A stretch of DNA of 64,000 bases. It comes from Planctomycetaceae bacterium. Its GTDB lineage: Bacteria; Planctomycetota; Planctomycetia; Planctomycetales; Planctomycetaceae. Location: NCBI GenBank assembly GCA_021732415.1, contig JAKFVC010000092.1:1-64000 (forward strand), given 5' to 3'. Position 1 is the stretch's first letter. The number at the start of each line of letters is the position of its first letter. The position numbers and the translations under genes are program-made. Shown one piece after another: positions 16,401 to 39,689 of this stretch. The notes under the pieces are model-generated. The model was not told the DNA's origin, did not search any database, and saw only the letters and a program-made list of their open reading frames with translations.

Positions 16401-19400
16401 CTGGGGGCTCACGATCCACGCGTTTCGCTGGACTTGATCGCGGCCAACTTGACGGCGACCGTCAACATTACGGACGATGATACGGCGACCGTTTCGATTG
16501 CGAAGATCACCGATGGCGCCGAGACGAACTCGCCAATCAACGGTGTGTTCCGCGTGACCCAGACCGCGATTAGTACGACCAACACGATCATCACGTATGT
16601 CATCACAGGTTCGGCCGTGCCCGGTGCGGGGAATGATTACACGACTCTGACGGGAACCGTGATGATCCCGGCCGGTCAGACCACCGCTGATATCAACGTG
16701 GCCGTGCTGAACGATGCGATCGTCGAAGGAACCGAGACCGTCGTCGTGACGCTGAACGGACTTGGCGCTCATGACCCTGATATCTCGCTAGATGGCGTCT
16801 CGACCAATCTGACCGCGACCGTCGACATCACCGACAACGATACGGCGACGGTCTCTATCGCGAAGATCGCTGATGGTGCCGAGCAAGCCACGCCGACCAA
16901 CGGCCTGTTCCGAGTCACCCAGACGGCCATCAGCACGACCGATACGGTGATCACCTATGCGATTGGCGGGACGGCGACTGCCGACACCGATTACGTCGCG
17001 TTGTCCGGCACAGTGACAATTCCCGCCGGTCAGACAACGGCCGATATCAGCGTGCCGGTGCTGGACAATCCCGAGATTGAAGCTGAGGAGACTGTCGTGG
17101 TGACGTTGACTGGTTTTACCAGTCACGATCCGGACATTACATTGGATTCGAACTCGGCCAATCGGACGGCAGCGGTCAAGATTACCGACAACGATAAGGC
17201 CACATTCTCAATCAACGACGTCACCGCAATTGAGAGCGACGGAGTGCTGGTGTTTGCCATCACCACGGACGTTCCCATGGAGATTGATATTGTTGTCGAT
17301 GTGACATTCACCGACGGAACAGCCATTGGGGGCGCAACGGACTATGCCAGCTCGATCCAGCACATCACCTTCCTGGCAGGCCAGATCAGCCAGACAGTTT
17401 CTGTCACGCTGAATGACGATCAGCTCGTCGAAGCGACCGAGAAGTTCACCGCGGCACTGAGTACCGCAACGCCTCTGGGTGGCCGTACCGTGGACCTTAG
17501 CGATACGGGGACTGGCACGATCACCGATGACGACACGGCCGTGTTTACGCTGGATGATGTGACGGCCAATGAGAGCGACGGAGTGCTGGTCTTTAATCTC
17601 TCGACCGATACGCCGCTGGATACGAATGTCACTATCAATGTCACATTCACGGATGGCACGGCAACCGGTGGGACCGACTACACCAGCACGTCTCAACAGA
17701 TTACGTTTGTCGCCGGCCAGACATCCAAATCGGTGAGCGTGCCTCTCATCAATGACAGCGTGGTGGAAACGACCGAAGCCTTCACCGCTGCCCTGCGGCT
17801 CAGTTCCGCCATCGGCGATCGCCAAACCAACGTTTCCGATACCGCCATCGGGACCATCATCGACAATGACGCTGCGACCTTCACGATTACGAATGCGGCG
17901 GCGAATGAAAGTGCCGGACTGCTGGTCTTCAATCTGTCGATGAACAATGCGCTCGATGTGGATGTGACGGTCGATGTCACCTTCACGGACGGCACGGCCA
18001 CCGGAGGAACCGACTACACGAGTGCTGTCCAGCACATTACGTTCCTCGCCGGCCAGACCAGCCAGGCGGTGATTCTCACGCTCACTGACGACAACGAAGT
18101 GGAGGCTGCCGAGACCTTCACCGCGGCCTTAAGTACCAGCACGCCACTCTCTGGCCGCAACGTGGACCTCAGCGATACCGGGGCCTACACGATTACCGAT
18201 AACGACGTCGCCACGTTCACTATGAACACCGTGACGGCGACCGAGACTGCCGGTGTGATGGTGTTCAATCTCACCACTGACAAGGCGCTCGATATTAATG
18301 TCACGATTGATGTGATCTTGATCGATGGGACTGCCACCGGCGGCGGGACCGATTTTTCGAGCACCGTGCAACATGTGACTTTCGTTGCCGGCCGGACCAG
18401 TCAATTGGTCAGCGTGACGCTGATCAACGACAACATCGTCGAGGCCACAGAAACCTTCACCGCAACCATGAGCACGGCGAGCGCGCTCGGTGGCCGCAAT
18501 ATCACATTCAGCGGCACCGGTACGGGCACGATCACCGATGACGACGCAGCCACCATCTCGGTCACCCCGATCAAGGACGGCACCGAAACCGATACCCCAT
18601 TCGTCGGCAACGGCAAGTTCCGAATCGCGCTGTCTGCAGCCAGTTCGACGAACACCGTAGTGACATACTCGGTAGGGGGAACCTCGACAGCGGGAAGTGA
18701 TTACGCGACGCTGTCCGGGACTGCCACAATCCCGGCCGGCCAGACATTCGTTGACGTCGACGTGCCTGTCTTCAATGACGCGCTTCTCGAAGGGACCGAG
18801 ATCGTCATACTGACCGTGACTGGGTTGGGAGCTCACAACCCGGCCATCACTTTGAATCCCATCGCGGCCAACCGTACCGCGACTGTCAGCATCACGGACG
18901 ATGACCTGTTGATGATCATCAGCGCGAACACCGCGGCCGAGTTCGAGAACAGCCCCGCCTCGAATCCAGTCCTGACTGTGGCTGTCAATAATGCTCCCAC
19001 CAACGCCGTGACCCTGTCTTTGTCCGGCCCGGATGCGGCCTTGTTCAAGCTCAACTCCGCCACCGGCCAGTTGACTTTCCTGAACAGCCCCGATTTCGAA
19101 TCGCCTCTCGACCAGGGAGGCAACAATCACTACGACCTGACCGTGACTGCGACAGACAGCCTGGTTCCGACGCATACGGCGCCGCAGAACCTGGTCATCA
19201 TCGTGGCCAATCAGAATGAAGCGCCGACCGTTCTGGCGTTGTCCGGAATTAACACGATTGCGGAGAACCAGCCGGCGGGATCTCCGATCGGTACTTTGTC
19301 CACGACCGACCCCGATAGTGGCGACACCTTTACATATGGGCTGACCCCCGGTGTCGGCAGCGCCGATAATGGATTCTTCCAGATCGTCGGCAATCAGGTG

Positions 19401-22400
19401 CGAACGGCTCAGCCGCTGAACTTCGAAGCCCAGTCCACTTATAACATTCGGATCCGCACGACAGACTCGGGTGGACTGGCCGTCGACAAATCCTTCGTCA
19501 TCTCGGCCACCAACCTGAACGAAGCCCCGACCGACATTGGATTGTCGGGCACGACCGTTCCCGAGAACCAGTCGGCAGGAACCCCCGTCGGCACGCTATC
19601 CAGCACCGACCCCGATGCCGGCGAATCATTTACGTACAGCCTCGTCACGGGGACGGGCAGCACCGATAACGGCCTCTTCCAGATCGTCGGCAATGCCCTG
19701 AAGACCGCCCAGCCGCTGAACTTCGAAGCGCAGTCGGCCTACTCCATTCGGGTCCGCGCGACCGACCTCGCCGGTTTGACGTTCGACAAGATCCTGACCA
19801 TCACGTCCACTAACTTGGATGAAACGCCCACGGGCCTCGCCCTGGCTGGCAACACGGTCGCGGAAAATGAATCCGCGGGCAAATTGGTCGGCGATCTGTC
19901 ATCCACCGACCCCGATTCCGGTGATACGTTCATCTACACGCTGGTCACAGGTGCGGGTAACACTGATAACGCCTTGTTCCAGATCATTGGCAATACATTG
20001 CGGACCGCGCAACCGCTGAACTTCGAAACGCAGCCCACCTACACCGTCCGCATTCGCACGACCGACTCTGGCGGATTGTCGTTCGAAAATACTTTCACCG
20101 TCACGGCGACCGACGTCAACGAAAGGCCGACTAACCTGAACTTGCTGGGCACGACGGTCTCAGAAAACCAGCCAGCCGGAACAGCCGTCGGCACGTTCTC
20201 CAGTGCCGATCCGGATGCCGGAGACTCGTTCACCTACAGCCTGGTGACGGGCTCTGGGAGTACTGATAACACCGCGTTCCAGATTGTCGGTAATTCGCTG
20301 CAGACAGCGCAGCCGCTGAATTTCGAAGCCCGGGCCGTGTACTCGATCCGAGTTCGCACGACCGACCTCGGCGGGCAGACGTTTGAGAAAACCGTGACGA
20401 TCACGGCCACCGATGTGAATGAGGCGCCGACGGATCTCGGCTTGTCTTCGTCTACGGTCGCCGAGAATCAACCCGCGGGAACTACGGTGGGGACGTTGTC
20501 GGGCCTCGATCCCGATTCCGGCGACAGCCTCACCTTCGCCTTGGTCGCAGGTGCCGGCAGTGCTGATAATGGCTCGTTCCAGGTGGTCGGCAACTCGCTG
20601 CGGACATCCCAGCCGCTGAACTTCGAAACCCAGGCCACATACTTAATCCGCCTCCGCGCGACAGATCTCGGTGGACTGACCGTCGAAAAAACGCTCATCA
20701 TCACCGCGACCAATACGAATGACACTCCCACCGATTCTGCCTTGTCTGGTTCCACGGTCGCGGAAAACCTGCCGTCGGTGACCGCAGTCGGTACCTTGTC
20801 CAGTACCGATCCGGATGCCGGCGACACGTTCACTTACACGCTGGTCTCGGGAACAGGCAGCACCGATAACGCCTTCTTCCAGATTGTTGGAAATACGTTG
20901 CGCACTGCGCAACCGCTGGACTTCGAAACGCATGCCGCGTACTCGATCCGCGTCCGCACGACCGACTTCGGCGGCCTGACCTTCGAGAAGATCTACACTA
21001 TTCATGTCACTAACGTCGATGAAACCCCGACGAACCTGGCCCTCTCCGCCAGCACCGTTGCGGAAAGCCAGCCGGCAGGATCAGCGGTCGGGCAACTGTC
21101 GACCACCGACCCCGATCTCGGTGACACGTTCGCCTACACGCTGGTCTCGGGATCAGGCAGCACCGATAATGCGCGATTTCAGATTGTGGGTAATGCGTTG
21201 CAGACCGCGCAACCGCTCGACTTCGAATCTCAGTCTGGATACTTCATTCGCATCCGCACGACTGATGTCGGCGGGCTGAGTGTTGAAAAGACATTTACGA
21301 TTGCGGCTCTCGATGTGAATGAGAAGCCGACGAATTTGATCTTGTCGGCCGATACTGTCACCGAGAATCAACCCGCGGAAACCACGGTCGGCACGCTCAT
21401 CGGGAGCGATCAGGATATTGGAGATTCGCTCACCTATTCGCTGATCTCGGGGACCGGGGGCAACGATAACGGGTTCTTCCAGATCTTCGGCAATACGCTG
21501 CAAACGAGCCTGCCGCTCGACTTTGATACTCAGCCCACGTATGCGGTCCTGGTCCGCGTGACTGACCGCGGCGGATTGACCTTCGACAAATCGTTCACGA
21601 TCATCGTCACCAACGTGAATGAAGCGCCGACCAGTCTCGTCCTGTCCGCCGCGTCGGTCGCCGAAAATCAGATTGCGGGAACGAGTATCGGGACGTTCTC
21701 CACCACCGATCCCGATCTCGGCAATACGTTTACCTATGCCTTCGCCTCGGGAGCAGGCGGCAACGATAACGCACTGTTCCGAATTCTCGGCAACAGTCTG
21801 CGGACCTCCCAGCCGCTCGATTTTGAAGCTCAACCGACGTACTCGATTCGTGTGCGGACGACAGACGGCGAGGGATTAACCTTCGACAAATCGTTCACGA
21901 TCACGCTCACTAATGTCAATGAGGGACCGACCAATCAGGCCCTGTCCGCCGCGACCATCGCCGAGAATCAACCCGTGGGCTCCTTCATCGGCACGTTGTC
22001 CAGCACCGATGTGGATGCGGGCGACACGTTGACCTACACGCTGGTCTCGGGGACGGGTAGTAATGATAACTCGTTCTTCCAGATCGCCGGGAACACTCTG
22101 CGAACATCCCAGGTCCTGAACTTCGAAGCCCAGTCCACGTACTCCATCCGCGTGCGGACCACCGACAGCGGTGGCTTGAACGTGGAGAAAGCCTACCTCG
22201 TCACGGCGACCAACATCAACGAAGAGCCAACCGACCTCACCCTGTCTGACAACAGCATCGCGGAGAACCAGCCGGCGGGAACCGTCATCGGTACGCTCTC
22301 CAGCACTGATCCGGATGCGGGCAGTACGCTGACCTATAGCCTGGTCTCGGGGACTGGTGACACTGGGAATGCGGCATTCGGCATCTCGGGGAATCATCTC

Positions 22401-22976
22401 ACCACGTCGCAGATCCTCGATTACGAAACTCGAGCCAGCTACTCCGTTCGCGTGCGATCGACAGATGCCGGCGGCCTGAGTACCGAGCAAGTCTTTACGA
22501 TCGGCGTCACCGACACCCCTGATGCCCCGCAAATCACGCTGGCATCCGGGACCGGCCGGCTGCCGAATGGGCACATCGGCCCCATTGACTCCAGCAGCAC
22601 GGTGACGGATCAGGACTCGACGAACTTCAAGAACAATCGACTGGTCGTCACAATTCAGTCCAGCAGTATCAAGCCACCGGACAAACTGTTTGTGATCGCC
22701 TCGGGCAGGAGTACTGACAGCCTGAAGGCCTCCCGCGGCCTGCTGCTGTTGGGCAAGACGCAATTGGGGACCGTGACCGGAGGTCTCGGCGGCCAACCCC
22801 TGCAGATCACCTTCACCGCAGACATCGAAGCGCCGCTGGTACAACGCCTGCTGCGGCAAATCGGCCTGAAGACCCAAAAGTCTGCGGCGGGTGTGCGACA
22901 CATTCAATTCCAGATCTTCGACGCCACGGGGGCCAGCAAGCCGCCGGTGGTTCGAGATGTCGCAGTGGGGGGTTAG
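7410..22976 (+). CDS. Giant extracellular protein A: metalloprotease head, 22 Calx-beta units, 12 cadherin-like units
   Basis: The protein has 5188 residues and starts at GTG behind AAGGAA. Residues 1-57 are basic and end in IQVLEERVLLSG, the LEPR-XLL-type planctomycete N-terminal motif. Residues about 60-450 form a metalloprotease domain with HEIGHALGF (His295, Glu296, His299) and a later Met-turn-like GVMDPT. Residues about 450-700 are beta-rich and unassigned. Calx-beta units follow from about 703 to 3832: 17 of the SIAKITDGAET type, four of the NESDGVLVF type (from about 3263), then one more of the first type. Units 1-4 carry an inserted beta-sandwich domain of about 100 residues. A cadherin domain (about 3834-3935) and 11 exact 100-residue cadherin-like repeats (AENQPAGT...PLNFEAQ) follow, then a 150-residue C-terminal domain. 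It is probably secreted, calcium-binding and involved in surface adhesion or matrix processing; protease activity is inferred from HExxH only. The gene lies in tandem with paralog B. Confidence 0.9.
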   Translation: MSLYSRGHSRFGYLQAAQLFFQSLLRGRQRRLSRCARFRVEGPIAIQVLEERVLLSGSPLDDSALNSIVISQPVADGVFMLYQNQPGTVTPSDLASTHPLGQVSSNLSAVVQNQPGSFDIVLHYGSQISSNSAAMSAFLRAAQFWESQFTDPVTINIDAEFGTSDIFGTAFGATTLGSTQSFTTGYAYSDIRDALIQDASSDESVTSLLPTVGALTFNSPAGITPYPYAGQTLIGINRANALALGFTNIPGAASIAEPGAVIDASISFNSQFAFDLDNSNGVSAGTYDFEAVALHEIGHALGFVSANDTVDYAVSHGQTGNLAPAPMDLFRVAPGQGANFSTATRIMNTGTAFSTQVFYDGKFSVSAFAGKPGVSGLATGDIPMSTGVSLGDGNQASHFKADDITGVNIGVMDPTLTSGVLGAVTRNDLRVLGLIGWDWKDNGSFSTVKPTVTVTPTATFDTTPALSGTVSESGANVYIRLPGVFGNDVTTLTLDGQLGGVNHGTGSFTLTNSAASATDIVRMDLILSDDPNNNSFGTDLNEGDFVAVSSTSVVGLLTPQNDTNYTDQDVRTRTKLLTLTFNSFNPGDAFTWDIWVWNGTTLQATTADALIGSLVKITYSNGITVTNTLAAVSGNPTAASTTLTVPHYLPTTNNGVLWNLADNLLPTLTVGQTYDVQTLIVDSSGAQATDSSSSELSIQSTATISVSIVKVTDGAEASAPTNGLFRATLSSASPTDTIVNYSVSGTATPGSGNDYTALSGTVTIPAGQLTANITVTVLNDATVEATETVVVTVTSVSGDPSLQIGGTTSSNFQGTFAPVTWFTNFTPGGTVNTTNAPASISVTSPNAGSNGYVEYGHSLTTSGVISFSWSYTTGNGAAADYPQYRLNGVYTLMPGYSTSGSGTQSGTAVIPVKSGDVFYFDMETVDGLGGSATTVFSNFVMTTYSNATLNITDNDTATVSIAKITDGIETSSPTNGLFRVTQTAASSTNTVVSYSIGGTATPGSGLDYTTLTGSVTIPAGQLTADITVAVLNDAIVEATETVVLSLTTLVGNSGITIGSGTTTGFQGAFAPATWTFSAGPGGTVNTSSAPTSISLVSGNSSTSGNTDYTHTVTSSGTISFSWSYSTADGASWDYPRYLINGVATTLPGYSTSGSNVQSGTASIPVTAGSTFGLRMYTVDGAAGAATTVFSNFVAASLSNATVNITDNDSATVTIAKLTDGTETSTPTNGSFRVTQTAVSSMNTVVSYAIAGTATSGSDYTTLTGTATILAGQLTTDITVPVLNDNIVEPTETVVATLTGLTGNSLVTLPATSVSNFQGTFAPVTWFTNFTPGGTVTTTSAPASITLTSPNAGSNGYVEYGHSVTSSGTISFSWSYTTGNGAAADYPQYRLNGVSTLLPGYSTSGSGTQSGTAVIPVSSGDTFYFKMTTADGLGGSATTVFSNFVVTTLPSATVNITDNDSATVTITKITDGAETSTPTNGVFRATLSAASSVNTVLNYIVGGTATPGSGQDYTTLSGTATIPAGQLTVDISVPVLNDALVEGTETVILTPTTLTANPRIAFAGTASNDFQGTFAPATWTFSAGPGGTVNTASAPATISLTSGNSSSSGGTDYTHSITAIGSISFSWSYSTNDGAQWDYPQYLINGVATLLPGYSTSGATSQTGTASIAVNAGDVFGLRMYTVDGVGGAATTVFSSFVSVAISSTTLNITDNDTATVSIAKILDGAETASPTAGKFRVTQTAVSTTDTVVTYSVTGTALPGTGNDYTTLTGTVTILAGQTTADIDVTVLSDAVVEPTETVIVTLTGFGAHDADITLNAVAANRTATVNITDNDTATVSIAKITDGAEQITPVNGLFRVTQTAISSTDTVVTYAVTGTATPGVGNDYSTLTGTVTILAGQTTADIIVSVLNDSISESTETVILTLTGFGSHDADITLDALAANRTATVNIADINLSKVSITKILDGAETDTPTNGKFRVAQTLTVAIDTVINYAITGTATAGGDYTTLTGTVTILAGQLTADIDVTVLNDAIVEGTETVVVTLTSLGAHDPTVALDGVPANLTATVAITDNDTAAVSIAQIGDGAERSTPINGLFRVTQTAVSSTNTVVTYSIAGTATPGVGNDYTTLSGTVTILAGQTTVDIVVPVLNDAITEVPETVILTLTSLGAHDSDITLDGVAANLTATVNIVDIVLATVSVAQIQDGAETNTPTDGKFRLTQTATVATDTVVNYAITGTATNGSDYTTLTGTVTILAGETTADIDVTVLNDAFVEGTEGVVVTLTGFGSHDPGVFLDVIPANVTATVNITDDDTATVSLAMITDGAETNTPTNGLFRVTQTAISSTNTVVNYSITGTAVAGAGKDYTTLTGTVTIPAGQTTADISVPVLNDSIIEGAETVILTLASFGTHDSDITLDSVAANLTATVNITDDDTATVSIVKTSDGAEQATPLNGVFRVFLTAISSSDTVVNYAIGGTTTAGAGNDYTTLTGTVTILAGQTTADIIVPVLNDAIVEGSETVILTLNGFGAHDPDIALDGVAANRTATVTITDNNTAKITLAKIQDGAETNTPTAGKFRVTQSAVATTDTVINYSIAGTATAGSDYTTLTGTVTILAGQTTADIDGLVLNDALVEGAETVIVTLTGLGAHNPSVTLDSIPANLTATVNITDDDTATVSIAKITDGSETNTPTNSLFRVTQTAISSTNTVVNYSIAGTAIAGAGKDYTTLTGTVTILAGQTTADISVPVLNDAIVEGTETVVVTLTTFGTHDPEIMLDGNSANLTATVNITDDDTATVSIAKITDGAEQASPVNGLFRVTQTAISSSDTVVNYSIAGTATPGAGNDYTTLTGTVTILAGQTTADISVPVLNDAIVEGNETVIVTLTDFGAHDPDITLDANPANLTATVTITDINTAKITLAKIQDGAETNTPTAGKFRVTQSNVAVTDTVVIYAMTGTATAGSDYTTLTGTVTILAGQTTADIDVPVLDDALVEGNESVVVTLTGLGAHDPRVSLDLIAANLTATVNITDDDTATVSIAKITDGAETNSPINGVFRVTQTAISTTNTIITYVITGSAVPGAGNDYTTLTGTVMIPAGQTTADINVAVLNDAIVEGTETVVVTLNGLGAHDPDISLDGVSTNLTATVDITDNDTATVSIAKIADGAEQATPTNGLFRVTQTAISTTDTVITYAIGGTATADTDYVALSGTVTIPAGQTTADISVPVLDNPEIEAEETVVVTLTGFTSHDPDITLDSNSANRTAAVKITDNDKATFSINDVTAIESDGVLVFAITTDVPMEIDIVVDVTFTDGTAIGGATDYASSIQHITFLAGQISQTVSVTLNDDQLVEATEKFTAALSTATPLGGRTVDLSDTGTGTITDDDTAVFTLDDVTANESDGVLVFNLSTDTPLDTNVTINVTFTDGTATGGTDYTSTSQQITFVAGQTSKSVSVPLINDSVVETTEAFTAALRLSSAIGDRQTNVSDTAIGTIIDNDAATFTITNAAANESAGLLVFNLSMNNALDVDVTVDVTFTDGTATGGTDYTSAVQHITFLAGQTSQAVILTLTDDNEVEAAETFTAALSTSTPLSGRNVDLSDTGAYTITDNDVATFTMNTVTATETAGVMVFNLTTDKALDINVTIDVILIDGTATGGGTDFSSTVQHVTFVAGRTSQLVSVTLINDNIVEATETFTATMSTASALGGRNITFSGTGTGTITDDDAATISVTPIKDGTETDTPFVGNGKFRIALSAASSTNTVVTYSVGGTSTAGSDYATLSGTATIPAGQTFVDVDVPVFNDALLEGTEIVILTVTGLGAHNPAITLNPIAANRTATVSITDDDLLMIISANTAAEFENSPASNPVLTVAVNNAPTNAVTLSLSGPDAALFKLNSATGQLTFLNSPDFESPLDQGGNNHYDLTVTATDSLVPTHTAPQNLVIIVANQNEAPTVLALSGINTIAENQPAGSPIGTLSTTDPDSGDTFTYGLTPGVGSADNGFFQIVGNQVRTAQPLNFEAQSTYNIRIRTTDSGGLAVDKSFVISATNLNEAPTDIGLSGTTVPENQSAGTPVGTLSSTDPDAGESFTYSLVTGTGSTDNGLFQIVGNALKTAQPLNFEAQSAYSIRVRATDLAGLTFDKILTITSTNLDETPTGLALAGNTVAENESAGKLVGDLSSTDPDSGDTFIYTLVTGAGNTDNALFQIIGNTLRTAQPLNFETQPTYTVRIRTTDSGGLSFENTFTVTATDVNERPTNLNLLGTTVSENQPAGTAVGTFSSADPDAGDSFTYSLVTGSGSTDNTAFQIVGNSLQTAQPLNFEARAVYSIRVRTTDLGGQTFEKTVTITATDVNEAPTDLGLSSSTVAENQPAGTTVGTLSGLDPDSGDSLTFALVAGAGSADNGSFQVVGNSLRTSQPLNFETQATYLIRLRATDLGGLTVEKTLIITATNTNDTPTDSALSGSTVAENLPSVTAVGTLSSTDPDAGDTFTYTLVSGTGSTDNAFFQIVGNTLRTAQPLDFETHAAYSIRVRTTDFGGLTFEKIYTIHVTNVDETPTNLALSASTVAESQPAGSAVGQLSTTDPDLGDTFAYTLVSGSGSTDNARFQIVGNALQTAQPLDFESQSGYFIRIRTTDVGGLSVEKTFTIAALDVNEKPTNLILSADTVTENQPAETTVGTLIGSDQDIGDSLTYSLISGTGGNDNGFFQIFGNTLQTSLPLDFDTQPTYAVLVRVTDRGGLTFDKSFTIIVTNVNEAPTSLVLSAASVAENQIAGTSIGTFSTTDPDLGNTFTYAFASGAGGNDNALFRILGNSLRTSQPLDFEAQPTYSIRVRTTDGEGLTFDKSFTITLTNVNEGPTNQALSAATIAENQPVGSFIGTLSSTDVDAGDTLTYTLVSGTGSNDNSFFQIAGNTLRTSQVLNFEAQSTYSIRVRTTDSGGLNVEKAYLVTATNINEEPTDLTLSDNSIAENQPAGTVIGTLSSTDPDAGSTLTYSLVSGTGDTGNAAFGISGNHLTTSQILDYETRASYSVRVRSTDAGGLSTEQVFTIGVTDTPDAPQITLASGTGRLPNGHIGPIDSSSTVTDQDSTNFKNNRLVVTIQSSSIKPPDKLFVIASGRSTDSLKASRGLLLLGKTQLGTVTGGLGGQPLQITFTADIEAPLVQRLLRQIGLKTQKSAAGVRHIQFQIFDATGASKPPVVRDVAVGG
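9840..12505 (+). repeat. Two-copy 1512-bp duplication inside giant gene A
   Basis: Calx-beta units 1-4 carry inserted domains of two alternating subtypes (WFTNFTPGG, WTFSAGPGG, then the same order again). The FQG codons that open the inserts give spacings of 759, 753 and 759 bases, so the pair repeats at exactly 1512 bases (504 codons). The two WFTNFTPGG inserts are close to identical at DNA level. Confidence 0.85.
13980..17195 (+). repeat. Threefold higher-order repeat of three Calx-beta units (1074-bp period)
   Basis: Units 9, 12 and 15 share the signature IQDGAETNTPT-GKF with the short TAGSDYTT loop. Units 10/13/16 and 11/14/17 match each other in the same way. The CAG codon of IQDG is at 14007, 15081 and 16155, a period of exactly 1074 bases (358 codons). 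Within the first 85 bases of units 12 and 15 I count eight differences, all synonymous. Confidence 0.85.
19221..22520 (+). repeat. Eleven 300-bp cadherin-like repeats, gene A
   Basis: The segments encoding TDPD-G-TFTY...FFQIVGN...QPLNFE recur every 300 bases without a single insertion or deletion, from the first repeat to the last. The final copy is more diverged (AFGISGN, ILDYET), but keeps the register. Confidence 0.92.
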
Positions 22977-26400: not shown

Positions 26401-29400
26401 TCTCGGGAACTGCCGTGGCCGGAACGGATTATACGACGCTGACGGGATCCGTCACGATCCTCGCCGGCCAGACCACCGCCGACATTACTGTGGCCGTACT
26501 CAATGATGCGATCCTCGAAGGGACCGAGGCCGTCTCGGTGACGCTGACCAGTGTCACCGGCGATCCACAGATCTCGATTCAGGCGATCGTTTCCAGTGGT
26601 TTTCAAGGGACCTACGCGACAGCCACCTGGTTCCCCAGCACGAACGCGGGCGGAACATTCACCACGAACGCACCGACTTCGATTTCCTTGACTTCCGGGA
26701 ACAGCAGTTCCGCCGGGAACATGGATTACACGCACTCGATCCCAGCGAACGGAACGGTCAGTTTCTCCTGGGCCTACTCCACCACTGATGGCGCTCAATG
26801 GGACTATCCGCTGTACTTGCTCAACGGAGTCGCCACGATCTTGCCTGGTTACAGCACTTCGGGAGCCTCGATTCAAAGTGGATCAGCGGTCGTTTCGGTG
26901 AATGCCGGAGATGTCTTCGGCTTCCGAATGTATACATTAGACGGGTTTGCCGGAGCCGCGACCACCGTCTTCTCGAACCTGAGCGCGCCCGCTAACCCGA
27001 GTGCCTCGTTGAACATTACTGACACTGATACGGCCACGGTGTCGGTCGCGAAGATCCTCGACGGGGCCGAGACGGCCACGCCGACGGCGGGCAAATTCCG
27101 GGTCACTCAATCGGCAATTAGTACCACCGATACCGTCGTCAACTATTCCATCGGTGGTACCGCTGTCACGGGGGCGGGTAACGACTACACCACGCTGACG
27201 GGAACCGTAACGATTACCGCCGGCCAGACCACCGCCGACATTGATGTGACGGTGCTCGGCGATGCCCGCGTGGAAGCCACCGAAACGGTCATCCTGACGC
27301 TGAGCAGTTTAGGCGCGCACGATCCCGATATCTCCCTGGATGCAGCCAACCTGGCGGCGACAGTCAACATCACCGATGACGACACCGCCACGGTGTCGCT
27401 CGCGTCCATCACGAATGGAGCGGAAACGAACACGCCGACCAGCGGCAAGTTCCGCGTGACGCAGACCGCGATCAGTTCGACTGACACCGTGGTCTTCTAT
27501 TCGATTGGCGGCACGGCCACACCCGGAGTCGGGAAGGATTACACGACACTGACGGGGAGCGTGACGATTACGGCCGGACAGACTACCGCCGACATCAATG
27601 TGACTGTGCTGAACGATGCGATCGTCGAAGGGACCGAGACGGTCGACTTGACGCTGACCGGCTTCGGGGCCCATGATTCCGATATCACGCTGGATTCCGT
27701 GTCGACCAATCTGGACGCGACCATCAACATTACGGACAACGACACGGCCAAGGTCTCGATCGCGAAATTCCTCGATGCCACTGAGGGGACTACACCGATC
27801 GACGGCAGGTTCCGCGTCACGCAGACGGCAATCAGTACGACCGACACTGTGGTTAACTATTCGATCGCCGGGTCGGCCACCGCCGGCGGCGATTACGCCA
27901 CCCTGTCGGGAGCGGTCACGATCTTGGCCGGCCAGACGACGGCTGATATCGACGTGGCGGTGATCGACGACGGGTTCATGGAAGCAAACGAGACCGTCGT
28001 GGTAACGTTGACTTCGCTCGGGGCCCACGATCCGGACATCGCGTTGAATAGTGCCTCGGCCAATTTGACAGCGACAGTCACGATTTTCGACGACGACTTC
28101 GCCACGTTTACGATCAACAACGTCACGGCCAATGAGAGCGCCGGAACGATGACATTCGCGCTGGCGACCGACCGGGCCCTCGACATTGATGTGGTCATCG
28201 ACGTGACGTTCACCGATGTCACGGCTATCGGCGGCGGAACGGATTATGCCAGCACGACGCAGCACATCACGTTCCTGGCGGGCCAGACCGATCAGACGGT
28301 CACCTTGTCGTTGAACGACGACAATCTGGTGGAAGCCACCGAAACGTTCACCGCAACGTTGAGCACGGCGACGAACCTCGGTACCCGCACGTTGAACCTG
28401 AATGATACCGGAACGGGTACCATTACCGACAACGACGCGGCCACGTTCACTATTGATGACGTCAGCGCCAATGAGAGTACCGGAGTTCTGATTTTTAATC
28501 TCTCGACTGACAAGGCATTCGACATCACTGTCGTTGTGGATGTGACATTCACAGGTGGTACGGCCACCGGGAGCGGGATCGATTACGCCAGCACGTTCCA
28601 ACATATTACGTTCCTCGCCGGCGAGACCACACAGTCGGTAAGCGTGCCACTCAATAATGACAACGTGGTGGAGGCCACCGAGACATTCACCGCCCAGTTG
28701 GGGACCGGCACGGCACTCGGCAACCGCAGCGTAGATCTCACCGATACGGCGACCGCTACCATCCTCGACGACGATACGGCGACCTTCACGATTAACGATG
28801 TGACGGTCAGTGAAAGTGCCGGAGCGATGGCCTTTACGCTGGCGACCAGCAGGCCTCTCGATATCGATGTCATCGTGGATGTCACCTTCACCGATGCAAC
28901 GGCCACCGGCGGCGCCGACTATGCCAGCACGGTGCAGCACATTACGTTCTTGGCGGGACAGACCAGCCAGACAGTGAACGTCGCACTCAATAACGACAGT
29001 GTGGTGGAGGCCAGCGAAACATTCACCGTGGCCCTGGGCACGACTACGCCACTGGGTAACCGCAGCGTGAGTCTCAGCGATACCGCCACCGGCCTGATTA
29101 ACGACAACGACACCGCCACCTTCACCCTCGACAACGTGACGGCCAGTGAGGATGCCGGGGTGCTCGTGTTCAACCTCGCAACCGACAAGGCCCTGGACAT
29201 CGACGTCATCATCAATGTGACATTCACCAACGGCACCGCGACCGGCGGGGGGACCGACTATGTCAGCACGTCCCAGCAGGTGACGTTGCTCGCGGGACAG
29301 ACCAGTCAATCGGTCAGCGTAACGCTCAACGACGACGGCCTCGTCGAAGCCAGCGAGACCTTTACCGCAGCCCTGAGTGCGCTGACCGTGCTCGGGAGCC

Positions 29401-32400
29401 GCACCGTCATCCTGAGTGACACCGGCACTGGTACCATTACCGACAATGATGCGGCCATCGTATCAATCACCCAAGTCGCGGACGGGGCCGAGACCAACAC
29501 TCCCACGAACGGCAAATTCCGCATCTCACAAACGGCCCCCAGTTCGACGAACACCGTAGTCACGTACTCGATCGGCGGCACCGCCATCTCCGGCAGTGAC
29601 TATGTCGCGCTGACTGGAACGGCCACGATTCTCGCCGGCCAGACGACCGTCGATCTGGATGTGACGGTCTTCAATGATGCCGTTCTGGAAGGCACCGAAA
29701 CCGTGGTCGTGACACTGCTGGGATTTGGGGCTCACGATCCCGACATCACATTGAATGGCACTCCTGCCAGTCAGACAGCCACCGTCATAATCACCGATGA
29801 TGACCCGCTGGTGCTCACGGGTAACGGCACCGCAGACGTGGTCGAAAACACGCCTGCGTCGACGGTGCTCCTGGTGGTCGGTGCCAACAATAGCCTGGGC
29901 AATTCGCTGACGATGACCTTAACCGGCCCCGATGCGGCGTTGTTCAACATCGACTCCGCGACTGGCAGCCTGACCTTCATCAACAGTCCGAATTTCGAGA
30001 CGCCGCTCGATCAAGGGACCGACAATCAATACCACGTGACGGTCAACGTGACGGACTCCTTGACACCGACCCATGCGACATCACGCGGCCTGGTGATCAA
30101 TGTCACGAATGAGAACGAAACCCCGACCAACCTGGCCCTGTCGGCAGCCATCATCGCCGAGAATCAACCCGCGGGAACGACTGTCGCCACATTGTCCACG
30201 ACCGACCCCGATGCCGGTAGCACGTTTACCTATGGCCTGACCTCCGGCGGCGGCAGCATCGACAACGCCTACTTCCAACTCGTCGGGAATTCCCTGCGTC
30301 TGACTCAACCGCTGAACTTCGAAGCCCAGTCCACTTACTCCATCCGTATCAGTAGCACGGACTCCGGCGGACTGTCGATCAGCAAAGCCTTCACGATTAC
30401 GGCCACTGATGTCAATGAGACTCCCACCGCGCTGGTACTGTCGCCCACGACCATTGCCGAGAACCAGCCAGTTGGAACCACCGTCGGCCTCTTGACCAGC
30501 ACCGACCCTGACGCCAGCGACACGGCGACTTATGGATTAGTCGCCGGGTCGGGCAGCACCGATAACGGTTCATTCCAGATTGTCGGCAATGTGCTGCGGA
30601 CAACACAGCCGCTGAACTTCGAAGCTCAAGCGGCCTACACCATCCGCGTCCGCGTCACCGACCTCGGTGGCTTGAACTCCGAGAAATCCTTCACGATCAC
30701 CGCCACGAACGTCAACGAAACCCCGACCGATCTCGCGCTGTCTGCCAGCACGGTCGCGGAAAATCAACCTGACGGAACATTGGTCGGAGCCTTGTCCACG
30801 ACTGATCCGGATTCCGGCGAGGCGTTCACGTACTCCCTGGTTTCCGGCACGGGCAGCGCCGATAACAGCCGCTTCCAGATCGCCGGCACAACTCTGCGAC
30901 TCGCACAGCCGCTGAACTTCGAAGCTCAGGCGACATACTCGGTACGCATCCGCACCACCGACAGCGGCGGGCTGAGCTTTGAGAACACGTTTACCGTCAC
31001 GGCGACGGATGTGAACGAGAAGCCAACGAGTCTGGCGTTGTCAACCAATACAGTTGCGGAGAACCAGCCGGCCGGAACCGGCATCGGCACTTTGTCCAGT
31101 ACGGACCCGGATGCCGGCGACACGTTCACTTACACCCTGGTTGCAGGCACGGGGAGTGGCGATAACGCCTCCTTCCAGATCGTCGGCAACACTCTGCAGA
31201 CCGCACAACCGCTGAACTTCGAAGTCCGGCCCACCTATTCGATCCGCATTCGCACGACCGATCTCGGCGGACTGACGACGGAGAACACGTTCACTATCAC
31301 TGCCACTAACGTCAACGAAACACCGACTGGCCTCGGACTGGCGCCGTCTGCCGTCGCGGAGAATCAGCCGGCCGGAACCGGGGTCGGTACGTTGTCCGGA
31401 GTCGATCCGGATGCCGGAGACACCTTCACTTACACCTTGGTTGCGGGCCCCGGCGGCACTGATAACACCTTGTTCGCGATCGTCGGCAACTCGCTGCGAA
31501 CGACTCAGCCGTTGAACTTCGAAGCCCAATCCGCGTATTCGATCCTCATCCGCACAACCGACCTGGGCGGGCTGACGTTCGACAAAACCTTCGTCATCAC
31601 CGCCACCGACGTGAACGAGGCTCCCACCGACCTCACGCTATTGACCACGACAATTGCCGAAAGCCCCCTTTCCGGAATACAGGTTTCGACCATCACCACC
31701 GCCGATCCGGATGCCGGGGACATGTTCACCTATACTCTGGTCTCGGGTTCGGGCAGCACCGATAATGCCTTCTTCCAGATCGTCGGCAATGCCTTGCGCA
31801 CGGCCCAACCCCTGAACTTCGAAGCCCAGTCCACGTACTTCATCCGCATTCGTACCACCGACTTCGGCGGGCTGACATTCGAGAAGACGTATACGATCAC
31901 CGTCACTGACGTCAACGAAGCCCCGACGATTCTCGCGGTCTCCGGCAATACCGTCCCGGAAAATCAGCCCGCGGGAACGCCAGTCGGCACGCTCTCCACC
32001 ACCGATCAAGATGCCGGGGAATCATTTATCTACACCCTGGTCACCGGCACTGGGAGTGCCGATAACGCCAGCTTCAAGATTGTCGGCAACCAACTGCAAA
32101 CGGCGCAGCCATTGAATTTCGAAGTCCAATCCGGTTACGCCGTTCGCATTCGAACGACCGATCTCCGCGGACTGACCCTCGAGAAATCGTTCACCATTAG
32201 TGCCACTAACGTGAACGAGGCTCCCATAAATCTGATCCTGTCTTCCAACACCGTGGCCGAGAACCAGCCGGCCGCAACGACCGTCGGCCTCCTGATCGGC
32301 ACCGATGCGGATGCCCCCGATACGCTCACGTATTCCCTCGTCTCGGGCCCTGGCGATACAGATAACAGCCTGTTCCAAGTTGACGGCAATCTGCTGCAAA

Positions 32401-33872
32401 CCGTGCAGCCGTTGAACTTCGAGGCCAAGTCCAGCTACTCGGTGCTGGTCCAGACGACTGATTTGGCCGGATTGACCCTGACCAGATCCTTCACGGTCAC
32501 CGTCACCGATGTCAACGAGGCCCCCACGGGACTCGCCTTATCGGCCGACACGGTCCTGGAGAAGCAGCCGGCCGGAACGGTCGTCGGCACTCTGTCCAGC
32601 ACCGATCCGGATTCTGGTGAGGCCCTCACGTACTCGCTGGTCGCGGGTGGCGGCAGCACCGACAACGCGTTCTTCCAGATCGTGGGCAATAGTCTTCGTA
32701 CAAGCCAGCCGTTGATCTTCCAGGACCAGGCCACGTACTCGATCCTCGTGCGGGTCACTGACCACGCCGGGTTGAAACTCAACCGGTCCTTTACGATCAC
32801 GGCCATCCGGCAAAATGCCGCCCCCACTGGCCTGGCACTCTCGGGTAACTCGGTCGCTGAAAACCAGAACATCGGGACCTCCATCGGAAATCTGACCACG
32901 GTCGATGCCGACACCGACGACACGTTCACCTACGCACTGGTCACGGGCAGCGGCAGCGACGATAACTCGTTCTTCCAACTTGTTGGTAACACCTTAAAAA
33001 CCAGCCAGTCGCTGAACTTCGAAGCTCAGCCGACATACACGGTCCGGATTCGAACAACCGACTCGGGCGGACTGATGCTCGAGAAGGCGTTCACCATCAA
33101 CGCCACTAACGTCAACGAGACTCCCGCCGCACTCGCGTTGTCGGATAATACCGTCGCCGAGAACGAGCCCGCGAATACCTTCATCGGCACCTTGTCCAGC
33201 ACCGACCCCGATGTCGGCGATACACTCACCTACACGCTGGTCTCCGGAACGGGTGACGCGGGGAACGCGGCATTCGTCATCTCGGGCAACAGCCTCAGCA
33301 CGTCGCAAAGCCTCGATTTTGAGACTCAAGCCAGTTACTCCATCCGAGTCCGCACGACAGACGCAGGTGGCTTGAGCGTCGACAAGGTCTTTACGATTCA
33401 AGTCACCGACACCCCCGACGCACCGCGGATCCAGACGTCTTCCGGCACGGGGACCTTCCCCAACGGACACAGCGGAAGGATCGATGCCGGCGCGATCGTT
33501 TCCGATCAAGATTCGACTAACTTCATCAACAACCGGATCGTCGTCACGATCGATCCCACCACAATCAAGACACCCGATACCCTGCTGGTGTTCGCCTCCG
33601 GTCGCGGCACCGACAAGCTGAAGGCGTTGCACGGAAATCTCCTGCTCGGCAAAACACAACTGGGCACGGTCACCGGCGGTCTCGGCGGCCAACCGCTGCA
33701 AATCACCTTCACGGTCGACATCGATGCTCCACTGGTGCAACGCGTCCTGCGGCAAATTGGCCTGAAGACCCAAAAGTCCGCTGCCGGCGTGCGACACATC
33801 CAATTCCAAATGTTTGATGGGACGGGAGCCAGCAAGCCGCCGGTGGTCAAGGACGTCGCCGTGGGGAGTTAG
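23406..33872 (+). CDS. Giant extracellular protein B: metalloprotease head, 10 Calx-beta units, 12 cadherin-like units
   Basis: This 3488-residue paralog of protein A also starts at GTG behind AAGGAA. It has the same order: basic N-terminus ending IQVLEDRVLLSG, metalloprotease domain with HEIGHALGF (His297, Glu298, His301) and GVMDPT, a beta-rich segment, and Calx-beta units from about residue 704 to 2134. Next come one cadherin domain, 11 cadherin-like repeats and the same C-terminal domain (ends KPPVVKDVAVGS). The Calx-beta array has five SIAKI-type units (the first two with inserted beta-sandwich domains), four NESAG-type units and one final SIAKI-type unit: 5+4+1 against 17+4+1 in A. No membrane anchor or sortase signal is visible at the C-terminus. 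It is probably secreted, with calcium-dependent folding; its substrate or binding partner is unknown. Confidence 0.9.
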   Translation: MSLHSCGNSRCGYLQYAQLFFHSLLRGRRQRLTRRERFRNLGTQAIQVLEDRVLLSGSSIDLDTNDPIVISQQVAPDTYMLYQSHQGTVRPSDLNGTTGGLNGPGGSNISTVIQNQPGTFNIVLNYGPQLALNPAAIAAFEGAASFWETQFSDPITVYIDAEFGTKDLSGASFPANVLGSTGSVDSFFLYSDIRDALIQDASKDESLVNSLPSVAGLTFNTAAGLPAIQFAGQTAMDVNRANAMALGFTNVPGDVSVINSSLIIDASISFNSGFSFDLDSSNGVTSGAYDFRAVALHEIGHALGFVSAVDAVDYYVDNSISTTIIPAPMDLFRLAPGQGGSFSTAPRILNTGAAVPTQVFYDGQFNVSAFAGKPGVSGLTTGDIPMSTGVGVGDGNQASHFKSDDITTVNIGVMDPTLASGVVGVVTRNDLRVLGMIGWDWKDNGAFSTVTPIVTVTPTSTSDTTPALTGTVSESGADVYVRLPALFGNDSATLLADGQLGGTSQGTGSFTLSNSVSSTANIVRMDLLVPGSVNGGCFMTDSSNGDFIALSGAAATGLLSPTSDNSFNDQDVRTRTDLLSLTFSDFNPGESFSWDIYVLNEARTNFVTGDYLIGGLVRITYDNGITVTNTLAAVGGNPTASSTTLTAPHYLATTNDGSTWTLADNLLPALTVGQTYEVQTLIVDKSGAEATDSTSNELVILANGAISLSIVKVTDGTETSTPTNGLFRATLSSTSLTDTIVNYLVGGTATPGAGNDYTTLSGTVTILAGQLTADIVVPVLNDAVVEGTETVVVTPASVIGDPMIVVSGTPSNDFQGLFAPGFWTFFGGPAGSVNTAGAPASISLTSGNVGVAGNSDYIHIISAPGSISFAWSYTTSDSAAADYPQYLLNGVATILPGYSIGGATTQSGTAVIPVNVSDFTFGLRMATTDGNNGAATTVFSNFVSTAYTSTSLNITDNDTATISLAKLLDGVESNTPTDGVFRVTQSAVSSTNTVVNYTISGTAVAGTDYTTLTGSVTILAGQTTADITVAVLNDAILEGTEAVSVTLTSVTGDPQISIQAIVSSGFQGTYATATWFPSTNAGGTFTTNAPTSISLTSGNSSSAGNMDYTHSIPANGTVSFSWAYSTTDGAQWDYPLYLLNGVATILPGYSTSGASIQSGSAVVSVNAGDVFGFRMYTLDGFAGAATTVFSNLSAPANPSASLNITDTDTATVSVAKILDGAETATPTAGKFRVTQSAISTTDTVVNYSIGGTAVTGAGNDYTTLTGTVTITAGQTTADIDVTVLGDARVEATETVILTLSSLGAHDPDISLDAANLAATVNITDDDTATVSLASITNGAETNTPTSGKFRVTQTAISSTDTVVFYSIGGTATPGVGKDYTTLTGSVTITAGQTTADINVTVLNDAIVEGTETVDLTLTGFGAHDSDITLDSVSTNLDATINITDNDTAKVSIAKFLDATEGTTPIDGRFRVTQTAISTTDTVVNYSIAGSATAGGDYATLSGAVTILAGQTTADIDVAVIDDGFMEANETVVVTLTSLGAHDPDIALNSASANLTATVTIFDDDFATFTINNVTANESAGTMTFALATDRALDIDVVIDVTFTDVTAIGGGTDYASTTQHITFLAGQTDQTVTLSLNDDNLVEATETFTATLSTATNLGTRTLNLNDTGTGTITDNDAATFTIDDVSANESTGVLIFNLSTDKAFDITVVVDVTFTGGTATGSGIDYASTFQHITFLAGETTQSVSVPLNNDNVVEATETFTAQLGTGTALGNRSVDLTDTATATILDDDTATFTINDVTVSESAGAMAFTLATSRPLDIDVIVDVTFTDATATGGADYASTVQHITFLAGQTSQTVNVALNNDSVVEASETFTVALGTTTPLGNRSVSLSDTATGLINDNDTATFTLDNVTASEDAGVLVFNLATDKALDIDVIINVTFTNGTATGGGTDYVSTSQQVTLLAGQTSQSVSVTLNDDGLVEASETFTAALSALTVLGSRTVILSDTGTGTITDNDAAIVSITQVADGAETNTPTNGKFRISQTAPSSTNTVVTYSIGGTAISGSDYVALTGTATILAGQTTVDLDVTVFNDAVLEGTETVVVTLLGFGAHDPDITLNGTPASQTATVIITDDDPLVLTGNGTADVVENTPASTVLLVVGANNSLGNSLTMTLTGPDAALFNIDSATGSLTFINSPNFETPLDQGTDNQYHVTVNVTDSLTPTHATSRGLVINVTNENETPTNLALSAAIIAENQPAGTTVATLSTTDPDAGSTFTYGLTSGGGSIDNAYFQLVGNSLRLTQPLNFEAQSTYSIRISSTDSGGLSISKAFTITATDVNETPTALVLSPTTIAENQPVGTTVGLLTSTDPDASDTATYGLVAGSGSTDNGSFQIVGNVLRTTQPLNFEAQAAYTIRVRVTDLGGLNSEKSFTITATNVNETPTDLALSASTVAENQPDGTLVGALSTTDPDSGEAFTYSLVSGTGSADNSRFQIAGTTLRLAQPLNFEAQATYSVRIRTTDSGGLSFENTFTVTATDVNEKPTSLALSTNTVAENQPAGTGIGTLSSTDPDAGDTFTYTLVAGTGSGDNASFQIVGNTLQTAQPLNFEVRPTYSIRIRTTDLGGLTTENTFTITATNVNETPTGLGLAPSAVAENQPAGTGVGTLSGVDPDAGDTFTYTLVAGPGGTDNTLFAIVGNSLRTTQPLNFEAQSAYSILIRTTDLGGLTFDKTFVITATDVNEAPTDLTLLTTTIAESPLSGIQVSTITTADPDAGDMFTYTLVSGSGSTDNAFFQIVGNALRTAQPLNFEAQSTYFIRIRTTDFGGLTFEKTYTITVTDVNEAPTILAVSGNTVPENQPAGTPVGTLSTTDQDAGESFIYTLVTGTGSADNASFKIVGNQLQTAQPLNFEVQSGYAVRIRTTDLRGLTLEKSFTISATNVNEAPINLILSSNTVAENQPAATTVGLLIGTDADAPDTLTYSLVSGPGDTDNSLFQVDGNLLQTVQPLNFEAKSSYSVLVQTTDLAGLTLTRSFTVTVTDVNEAPTGLALSADTVLEKQPAGTVVGTLSSTDPDSGEALTYSLVAGGGSTDNAFFQIVGNSLRTSQPLIFQDQATYSILVRVTDHAGLKLNRSFTITAIRQNAAPTGLALSGNSVAENQNIGTSIGNLTTVDADTDDTFTYALVTGSGSDDNSFFQLVGNTLKTSQSLNFEAQPTYTVRIRTTDSGGLMLEKAFTINATNVNETPAALALSDNTVAENEPANTFIGTLSSTDPDVGDTLTYTLVSGTGDAGNAAFVISGNSLSTSQSLDFETQASYSIRVRTTDAGGLSVDKVFTIQVTDTPDAPRIQTSSGTGTFPNGHSGRIDAGAIVSDQDSTNFINNRIVVTIDPTTIKTPDTLLVFASGRGTDKLKALHGNLLLGKTQLGTVTGGLGGQPLQITFTVDIDAPLVQRVLRQIGLKTQKSAAGVRHIQFQMFDGTGASKPPVVKDVAVGS
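30120..33419 (+). repeat. Eleven 300-bp cadherin-like repeats, gene B
   Basis: The repeats keep an exact 300-base register throughout and are colinear with those of gene A. Copy 3 ends SFENTFTVTATDVNE in both genes, copy 6 carries TDFGGLTFEK in both, and copy 11 is the diverged terminal form in both. Confidence 0.92.
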
Positions 33873-39594: not shown

Positions 39595-39689
39595 TTTGGG
39601 AAGCAGACATTCCTGGCAAGTGCCGGAACGCACTGCGGGCTGATTCACAGACGTGTCTCTATGTGCATTCTTTGACTTCTTTGAATACC

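What the first reader, a model, noticed from the sequence alone, without database searches (positions are those of the whole stretch)
19221..33419. Eleven cadherin-like repeats of exactly 300 bp in both paralogs
Across 22 repeats (6.6 kb) I see no insertion or deletion, and the copies are colinear between genes (copies 3, 6 and 11 share private features). The array predates the gene duplication and its length is strictly conserved, unlike the Calx-beta array.
Basis: seen in the sequence. Interest (0 to 1): 0.65.

Follow-up and report, generated by a model that had tools for sequence, protein, structure and literature searches.

The report
Paired calcium-binding cadherin stalk arrays
Two neighbouring giant bacterial surface-protein genes each carry eleven cadherin domains that were already laid out in one shared parent gene and probably form a calcium-stiffened stalk; this is a well-kept example of a known kind of protein.

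Summary
The array is real. Gene A (7410-22976) and gene B (23406-33872) are adjacent paralogues, each with 11 cadherin (PF00028-type) repeats. All 11 of B and 10 of 11 of A are exactly 300 bp; A's first copy is 303 bp, so "no insertion or deletion" is wrong by one codon. Copies are colinear: same-position A-B DNA identity 69.5% against 64.7%, 0 of 20,000 permutations as high. Clustering by gene is rejected (AU p 2e-6 DNA, 2e-3 protein); clustering by position is accepted once copies 7, 9 and 10 are freed. A same-genus genome has copies 1-10, each exactly 100 aa, 10 of 10 matching A's same position best in DNA. So the array predates the duplication. Cadherin calcium ligands are nearly invariant (E15, D30, D32, D82 in 32 of 32 copies); the predicted fold matches four-domain cadherin strings (Z 20.8). 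One junction, B9/B10, has lost four ligand positions: a candidate hinge. Fixed count and order are not special here: another family keeps 14 copies in order across two genomes (14 of 14). Most likely a fixed, Ca-stiffened stalk between a variable Calx-beta section and a recurrent C-terminal domain. New member of a known kind.

The parts
7410..22976 (+). Gene A, 5188 aa: N-terminal metalloprotease-like domain, 22 Calx-beta units, copy-0 cadherin, 11 cadherins, C-terminal domain
   Evidence: open frame; Pfam Calx-beta and Cadherin on the part from 9000; Calx-beta count; NF038122 225 bits vs cut-off 80
7806..8723 (+). NF038122 metallo_LGF metalloprotease domain of gene A (HEIGHALGF)
   Evidence: motif read
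9516..18905 (+). Calx-beta region of gene A: 22 units (18 type I, 4 type II; types are my own two seeds), with ~150-aa stretches after each of the first four
   Evidence: phmmer segmentation
18906..19217 (+). Gene A 'copy 0', divergent cadherin-like domain, 104 aa
   Evidence: 54% identical to B's copy 0
19218..22520 (+). Gene A cadherin array, 11 copies: copy 1 303 bp (19218-19520), copies 2-11 300 bp each (19521-22520)
   Evidence: PF00028
19248..19250 (+). Probable extra codon in A copy 1, the only indel among the 22 copies
   Evidence: best deletion point; absent in B01 and C01
22521..22973 (+). C-terminal ~150-aa domain of gene A (77% identical to that of B)
   Evidence: no match in NCBIfam or Pfam
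23406..33872 (+). Gene B, 3488 aa: same architecture with 10 Calx-beta units
23808..24725 (+). NF038122 metalloprotease domain of gene B
25524..29804 (+). Calx-beta region of gene B: 10 units (6 type I, 4 type II)
29805..30116 (+). Gene B 'copy 0' cadherin-like domain, 104 aa
30117..33416 (+). Gene B cadherin array, 11 copies of exactly 300 bp
   Evidence: PF00028
32721..32819 (+). B9/B10 junction: four calcium-ligand positions changed (67 I, 69 Q, 98 R, next unit's 1 A; linker AIRQNAAP)
33417..33869 (+). C-terminal ~150-aa domain of gene B
   Evidence: no NCBIfam match

Best explanation
A and B are adjacent paralogous giant proteins, probably secreted to the surface of a planctomycete. Each array is a string of eleven cadherin (EC-type) beta-sandwich domains whose junctions bind calcium as in animal cadherins, giving a stiff stalk of fixed length (about 50 nm at roughly 5 nm per domain). 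The stalk joins a copy-number-variable Calx-beta section and an N-terminal metalloprotease-like domain to a C-terminal domain shared by many large proteins of this genome. The 11-copy array formed by tandem duplication and had already diverged copy from copy before the gene duplicated; purifying selection on the fold and calcium sites has since kept unit length and order. Shown: repeat number, order, ligand conservation, homology to PF00028, predicted fold, array older than duplication. Inferred: calcium binding, stiffness, secretion, adhesive or matrix role. The loss of four ligand positions at B9/B10 would make one flexible hinge in gene B only.
For: Colinearity A-B and with a same-genus homologue, DNA best match at own position for 10 of 10 copies. 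Gene-wise clustering rejected. No sign of recent conversion: same-position A-B synonymous difference is near saturation (pS 0.49-0.76, dS 1.25 over copies 1-10), and the longest identical in-register DNA run between any two of the 32 copies is 29 bp. Ligands E15, D30, D32, D82 in 32 of 32 copies, E1 in 30, E69 in 29. The profile finds 150 distinct PDB sequences at E<=1e-3; the 60 shown bear cadherin-superfamily names or entry titles, best CELSR1 8vy2 at 5.6e-74, EP-cadherin 1l3w at 2e-28, whose aligned linker also reads VNEAP. Model of B04-B07: pLDDT 94.0; best VIA-align match CELSR1 EC4-7, Z 20.8, 382 residues, rmsd 6.0; Foldseek has 514 matches at E<=1e-3, the 50 shown all cadherins. Aligned gap columns in copies 1-10: 1, 1 and 0 of about 1000 (A-B, A-C, B-C) against 2, 14 and 22 in the ~440-aa N-terminal part.
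Against: No calcium, localisation or adhesion experiment. pTM 0.62 and 0.43, so the relative placement of domains is not well determined. Copies 7, 9 and 10 give little or no positional signal between A and B, and some tree pairs are off-position (A04-B07, A03-B10, A01-B07). Low gap counts are not confined to the array: A-B gap columns are also 0 of 257 in the region after the metalloprotease, 0 of 104 in copy 0 and 0 of 151 in the C-terminal domain. The model containing B9/B10 deviates no more from cadherin strings than the canonical one (rmsd 5.9 vs 6.0 to CELSR1 EC4-7), so a bend is not predicted, though the method places no ions. The homologue in G003 breaks off in copy 11, so the full 11 copies are shown only in A and B.
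Confidence: 0.75

Rival explanations
1. The two arrays expanded independently, or are kept alike by gene conversion between the adjacent paralogues.
For: A and B are adjacent and in the same orientation, which favours conversion; B07, B09 and B10 do not pair with A07, A09 and A10. An unrelated cadherin protein in G001 also has 11 copies but in no matching order (permutations at or above the diagonal: 18606, 9803 and 17716 of 20,000), so 11 can arise separately.
Against: Gene-wise trees rejected; a genome of another species of the genus shares the order; synonymous sites are nearly saturated and in-register identical runs are short.
Confidence: 0.05
2. The array is mainly a polysaccharide-binding surface (each cadherin domain a carbohydrate-binding module), with stiffness secondary.
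For: Cadherin domains of Saccharophagus degradans are reported as carbohydrate-binding modules: Fraiberg et al. 2011, seen only as a title in the reference list of PMC12153261. Planctomycete giant proteins are annotated with glycosyl hydrolase or carbohydrate-binding roles (PMC7717043 passages). An OprB-type carbohydrate porin gene lies at 1538-2941.
Against: Of the 17 columns conserved in at least 31 of 32 copies, four are calcium ligands and most others glycine, proline or hydrophobic; three are aromatic (F53, F68, Y74), whose exposure was not computed.
Confidence: 0.2
3. The constant length and number are only a fold constraint plus common descent, with no selection on copy number as such (compatible with the stalk reading; it denies only the 'ruler').
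For: Near-constant period is found in other arrays of these genomes: 10 of 11 units of 100 aa in L064, runs of 99-aa units in L047. Fourteen copies are kept in order in another family between two genomes (14 of 14), though with unit lengths of 98-103 aa.
Against: The Calx-beta arrays of the same proteins differ in copy number (22, 10, 12), so loss and gain do occur in these genes, yet the cadherin count is equal in A and B.
Confidence: 0.45

Closest known systems
Animal cadherin EC-repeat ectodomains (CELSR1, protocadherins, C-/EP-cadherin)
   Same: PF00028 domain; counterparts of the motifs XEX, DRE/DYE, DXNDN, DXD and XDX; tandem string; structural match Z 20.8 over 382 of 400 residues. Motif names as in PMC5120219 passages (DRE is recalled).
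   Different: 100-aa units of nearly constant length; linker (D/N)xNExP instead of DXNDN (though EP-cadherin 1l3w has VNEAP too); position 67 is usually N where animals have D (recalled); bacterial; ends in an unrelated C-terminal domain.
Giant cadherin-domain proteins of Planctomycetes, e.g. Stieleria varia (PMC7717043, passages read)
   Same: Genes over 15 kb annotated as cadherin-like, calcium-binding adhesion proteins; one is a 6858-aa 'Matrixin' with cadherin-like and calcium-binding annotation.
   Different: No repeat-by-repeat comparison appeared in the passages read; homology to those particular proteins was not tested here.
Bacterial Calx-beta/cadherin-like adhesins: BapP of Pseudoalteromonas tunicata, LapA, CabC/CabD, SiiE, MpAFP (PMC12153261 and PMC3492233, passages read)
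   Same: Long proteins with strings of beta-sandwich domains (Calx-beta or cadherin-like in several), serving as calcium-dependent extenders or adhesins.
   Different: MpAFP RII is about 120 DNA-identical 104-aa repeats, a recent expansion, whereas here copies of A and B differ by at least 26% in DNA and are old. No RTX family was reported for B or for A from 9000 on.
Calcium-free linkers of protocadherin-15 EC9-10 and Drosophila N-cadherin (PMC5120219 abstract and passages); LI-cadherin (PMC8427231, listing only)
   Same: Ligand motifs lost at a single junction inside an otherwise canonical string (B9/B10).
   Different: In PCDH15 EC9-10 all five motifs are replaced; at B9/B10 XEX, DXD and XDX remain and only the DRE-like and linker motifs are lost.

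Membership tests
Cadherin domain family PF00028 | Profile score over the curated cut-off (28.8 bits) | tested here: met
   16 of the 22 units appear's list (150 of 219 candidates scored), all 16 over the cut-off singly; A06, A07, A08, B05, B06 and B09 are not in it. Whole proteins score 301 (B, 12 stretches) and 324 bits (A from 9000, 11 stretches).
Cadherin domain family PF00028 | EC-type beta-sandwich fold | tested here: met
   Predicted model of B04-B07, pLDDT 94.0; CELSR1 EC4-7 Z 20.8, rmsd 6.0 over 382 residues. A prediction, not a solved structure.
Cadherin domain family PF00028 | Inter-domain calcium ligand motifs | tested here: met
   24 of 29 fully scored junctions have every scored position in the allowed set (my sets; N allowed at 67 and 98); four have one deviation, B9/B10 has four. 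The half-scored junctions to the C-terminal domain have P at 100 in both A and B.
Cadherin domain family PF00028 | Actual calcium binding and stiffening | not testable with these tools
   Needs protein.
Classical (type I/II) cadherins of animals | Single membrane span and catenin-binding cytoplasmic tail | tested here: not met
   Both proteins end about 150 aa after the last cadherin, in B in a predicted mostly beta domain; the Pfam scans of B (E<=0.01) and of A from 9000 (E<=0.001) list no cadherin cytoplasmic domain. No membrane-span predictor was run.
NF038122 metallo_LGF metalloproteases | Curated cut-off 80 bits | tested here: met
   225.1 and 224.9 bits; HEIGHALGF present in both. Catalytic activity not tested.
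LEPR-XLL (NF012209) domain proteins | Curated cut-off 17 bits at the N-terminus | tested here: inconclusive
   16.1 bits (A) and 12.4 bits (B), below 17; QVLE(E/D)RVLLSG is visible there.
RTX/type I-secreted giant adhesins (LapA, MpAFP) | C-terminal RTX nonapeptide repeats | tested here: not met
   No hemolysin-type calcium-binding family listed in the Pfam scan of B (E<=0.01) or of A from 9000 on (E<=0.001).
Calx-beta PF03160 | Profile score over cut-off | tested here: met
   350.8 bits (B), 624.4 (A from 9000) and 452.2 (G003 homologue).

The most novel reading that the evidence does not exclude
The cadherin array is a molecular ruler: its domain number is held fixed while the adjoining Calx-beta section is the adjustable part, and gene B has evolved a programmed calcium-free hinge at its ninth junction, so the two paralogues present the same stalk with different bending: a bacterial parallel to the calcium-free elastic linkers of animal tip-link cadherins.
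Probability: 0.2. Interest if true: 0.55.

Novelty: new member of a known kind. Interest (0 to 1): 0.3.

Why it matters
It gives a clean example of an old bacterial cadherin array that has not been homogenised, next to a Calx-beta array that has changed copy number, inside one pair of genes. That makes it usable to ask whether bacterial stalk length is under selection. The B9/B10 junction is a specific, cheap test of whether bacteria use calcium-free cadherin hinges. The family itself and the general layout are known.

Tried and rejected
Independent expansion or clustering by gene: rejected. Recent gene conversion: no support (near-saturated synonymous sites; longest in-register identical run 29 bp).

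The equal number 11 in another protein (L064, G001): tested as a possible relative of the array in the same order and rejected, no positional signal. I count it as coincidence.

Uniqueness of near-constant period and kept order: rejected as a special trait.

'Planctomycete' rests on gene content (DUF1501, PSD1/PSCyt2, PSCyt1) and a below-threshold LEPR-XLL hit. In the 59-genome search, own genome included, 18 had a match at E<=0.001; besides the own genome only G003 (57%), G028 (41%) and G058 (38%) matched over most of the domain. The cadherin arrays, if any, of G028 and G058 were not analysed beyond a motif scan.

Papers: seven searches in all. Those nearest this pattern found nothing on it: 'Calx-beta' with 'Planctomycet' (one paper, on Zobellia) and six terms on cadherin tandem-repeat copy number (four unrelated papers). 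'cadherin', 'Planctomycetes', 'giant' gave five papers, of which PMC7717043 was read in passages. This does not show that it is unpublished; most subscription papers are not held.

Fold of the C-terminal domain: the second look at Foldseek's matches for the B08-to-end model returned cadherin strings, mostly over residues 1-400, so its fold is untested.

Full report
WHAT IS THERE. The window holds two adjacent giant genes on the + strand, A (7410-22976, 5188 aa) and B (23406-33872, 3488 aa). Each has, in order: a short N-terminus with a below-threshold LEPR-XLL motif; an NF038122 metalloprotease domain (225 bits each, cut-off 80); Calx-beta units; a divergent cadherin-like domain ('copy 0', 104 aa in both); eleven cadherin repeats; and a C-terminal domain of about 150 aa, 77% identical between the two. 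Of 9 NF038122 matches in this genome, only these two pass the cut-off.

THE OBSERVATION. Registering every unit on the E of the ExPT motif gives 11 units of exactly 300 bp in B (30117-33416) and, in A, a first unit of 303 bp (19218-19520) followed by ten of 300 bp. It is absent in B01 and in the same-genus copy C01. The claim therefore holds for 21 of 22 units.

COLINEARITY. Mean same-position identity A-B is 69.5% DNA and 66.8% protein against 64.7% and 60.4% at different positions; 0 and 1 of 20,000 permutations reach the diagonal. Own position is the best DNA match for 7 of 11 A copies and best in protein for 4 of 11; copies 9 and 10 show no DNA preference (rank 10 and 9). The 22-copy trees are weak: one starred pair each (11-11), lesser same-position pairs 1, 5, 6 (DNA) and 3, 8 (protein), and also off-position pairs (A04-B07, A03-B10 in DNA; A01-B07 in protein).

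A THIRD ARRAY. The only close homologue among the 58 other genomes searched lies on a contig of a same-genus genome, G003 (L044; copies called C). Its N-terminal domain is 57% identical to B's in the search, 67% to A's and 60% to B's in pairwise alignment of a slightly longer stretch. Its middle is different: Big_5 and DUF5122 modules, then 12 Calx-beta units. Its cadherin copies 1-10 are each exactly 100 aa; copy 11 breaks off into unrelated sequence, which may be a real truncation or an assembly fault. Each of the 10 copies has A's same-numbered copy as best DNA match (10 of 10; 9 of 10 in protein); against B the figure is 4 of 10 in DNA and 3 of 10 in protein.

TREE TESTS on 32 copies (22 from the window, 10 from G003). 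Clustering by gene is rejected: A+C against B, AU p 2.1e-6 (DNA) and 2.2e-3 (protein); three gene clusters, 2e-37 and 8e-5. Clustering of all copies by position is rejected in DNA by AU (0.024; SH 0.30) and accepted in protein (0.29). With positions 7, 9 and 10 freed it is accepted in both (0.12 and 0.40); those three were chosen. So the array predates the duplication, while the exact pairing of B07, B09 and B10 is open. Copies 8-10 have a larger A-B non-synonymous difference (0.25-0.27) than A-C (0.08-0.15), and B-C is equally large (0.25-0.27), so the excess lies on B's side.

AGE AND CONVERSION. Over copies 1-10, dS is 1.25 (A-B), 0.85 (A-C) and 1.24 (B-C). Same-position A-B pS (0.49-0.76) is hardly below the off-position mean (0.64); at this saturation the time between array growth and gene duplication cannot be told. 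The longest identical in-register DNA run between any two of the 32 copies is 29 bp, so there is no sign of recent conversion.

IS STRICT LENGTH SPECIAL? Within the pair, yes against the Calx-beta section: 22 (A), 10 (B), 12 (G003) units by my segmentation (21, 10 and 11 Pfam stretches), with several of A's units grouping among themselves. In gap columns the array is lower than the N-terminal part in A-C and B-C (1 and 0 of about 1000 against 14 and 22 of about 440), but A-B alignments of the other conserved domains are also nearly gapless (0 of 257, 0 of 104, 0 of 151; 2 of 439 in the N-terminal part). Across the genus it is not special: a different cadherin family keeps 14 copies in the same order in this genome (L065) and in G002 (L066), 14 of 14 best matches at own position, mean 63.2% against 38.8%, with units of 98-103 aa. 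L064 in G001 has 11 copies, ten of them 100 aa and one 102 aa, but no positional match to A, B or C. That also serves as a control that the positional signal is not an edge effect.

HOW IT PROBABLY WORKS. The profile of four-repeat stretches (alignment of 18 rows) finds 150 distinct PDB sequences at E<=1e-3; the 60 shown bear cadherin-superfamily names or entry titles, CELSR1 (8vy2) at 5.6e-74 and EP-cadherin (1l3w) at 2e-28. EP-cadherin's aligned linker also reads VNEAP, like the bacterial one. AlphaFold2 on B04-B07 gives pLDDT 94.0, pTM 0.62; best VIA-align match CELSR1 EC4-7, Z 20.8, rmsd 6.0 over 382 residues. The five ligand motifs named for animal cadherins in PMC5120219 (passages) have counterparts at E15, 67/69, 98-100 with E1, D30/D32 and D82. 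E15, D30, D32 and D82 are present in 32 of 32 copies. From this I infer calcium-filled junctions and a stiff stalk. PMC3492233 (passages) gives about 5 nm spacing for cadherin domains, so 11 units would span about 50 nm.

ONE ODD JUNCTION. Of 29 fully scored junctions (10 in A, 10 in B, 9 in G003), 24 are wholly within the allowed sets (which I set, admitting N at 67 and 98), four have one deviation (A8/9, C2/3, C6/7, C8/9), and B9/B10 has four: 67 I, E69 to Q, 98 R, E1 to A. The other nine internal junctions of B have none. Loss of both the DRE-like and the linker ligands should weaken or remove calcium there. PMC5120219 (abstract and passages) describes a calcium-free, bent linker in protocadherin-15. 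Against a bend: the model spanning B08 to the end (pLDDT 90.3, pTM 0.43) fits CELSR1 EC4-7 no worse (rmsd 5.9, Z 15.6). A plainer reading is relaxed selection in B's faster-changing copies 8-10. No B orthologue turned up for checking conservation.

C-TERMINAL DOMAIN. Searched alone it has 42 matches in this genome; a seven-row profile finds 52 (95 of 127 candidates scored) and matches in 7 of 41 family genomes, this one included. It has no NCBIfam match (A and B) and no Pfam match (A). Of the 42 I inspected 26, and 19 end within 25 aa of a stop codon; the other 7 are inner copies or have long tails. It is a plausible common end or attachment domain; its fold was not tested on its own.

KNOWN OR NEW. 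Planctomycete giant genes with cadherin-like, calcium-binding and 'Matrixin' annotation are in print (PMC7717043, passages), and Calx-beta/cadherin-like adhesins are known elsewhere (PMC12153261, passages). This is a new member of a known kind, faithfully inherited, with one junction worth a bench test.

Noticed in passing
22521-22973 and 33417-33869; also ends of L047, L048, L064, L065, L066: A ~150-aa C-terminal domain without a Pfam (A tested) or NCBIfam (A and B tested) match recurs in this genome (42 matches by single sequence, 52 by profile), is present in 7 of 41 family genomes (own included), and ends within 25 aa of a stop in 19 of 26 inspected matches: a candidate sorting, anchoring or capping domain of large proteins.
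   Followed up: partly
L044 (G003 contig C136), cadherin copies 1-10 against the N-terminal part: The A-homologue looks mosaic: A-C synonymous divergence is low in cadherin copies 4-10 (pS 0.38-0.56) but higher in copies 1-3 (0.57-0.70) and, in the N-terminal part, equal to A-B (dS 1.40 vs 1.41), with a different middle section; possible recombination between paralogues.
   Followed up: partly
L044, copy 11: The G003 array breaks off into unrelated sequence inside copy 11; real truncation or assembly join unknown.
   Followed up: no
39667-40475: Intergenic tandem repeat: two 331-bp units (91% matches) plus runs of a 9-bp TTCTTTGAT-like unit.
   Followed up: no
L064 (G001 contig C973): Another cadherin protein with exactly 11 copies and the same C-terminal domain, but unrelated order.
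   Followed up: yes
A 9516-12545 region; B 25524-27029 region: About 146-160 aa without a Calx-beta match follow each of the first four units of A and the first two of B, which are themselves shorter than the rest (92-104 aa): an inserted module (...FQGTFAPxTW...LPGYSTSG...), perhaps lying inside the Calx-beta unit.
   Followed up: no
A Calx-beta units 10/13 and 12/15: These pairs, each three units apart, group in the Calx-beta tree (SH-aLRT 82 and 95), a hint of triplet-block duplication in A.
   Followed up: no
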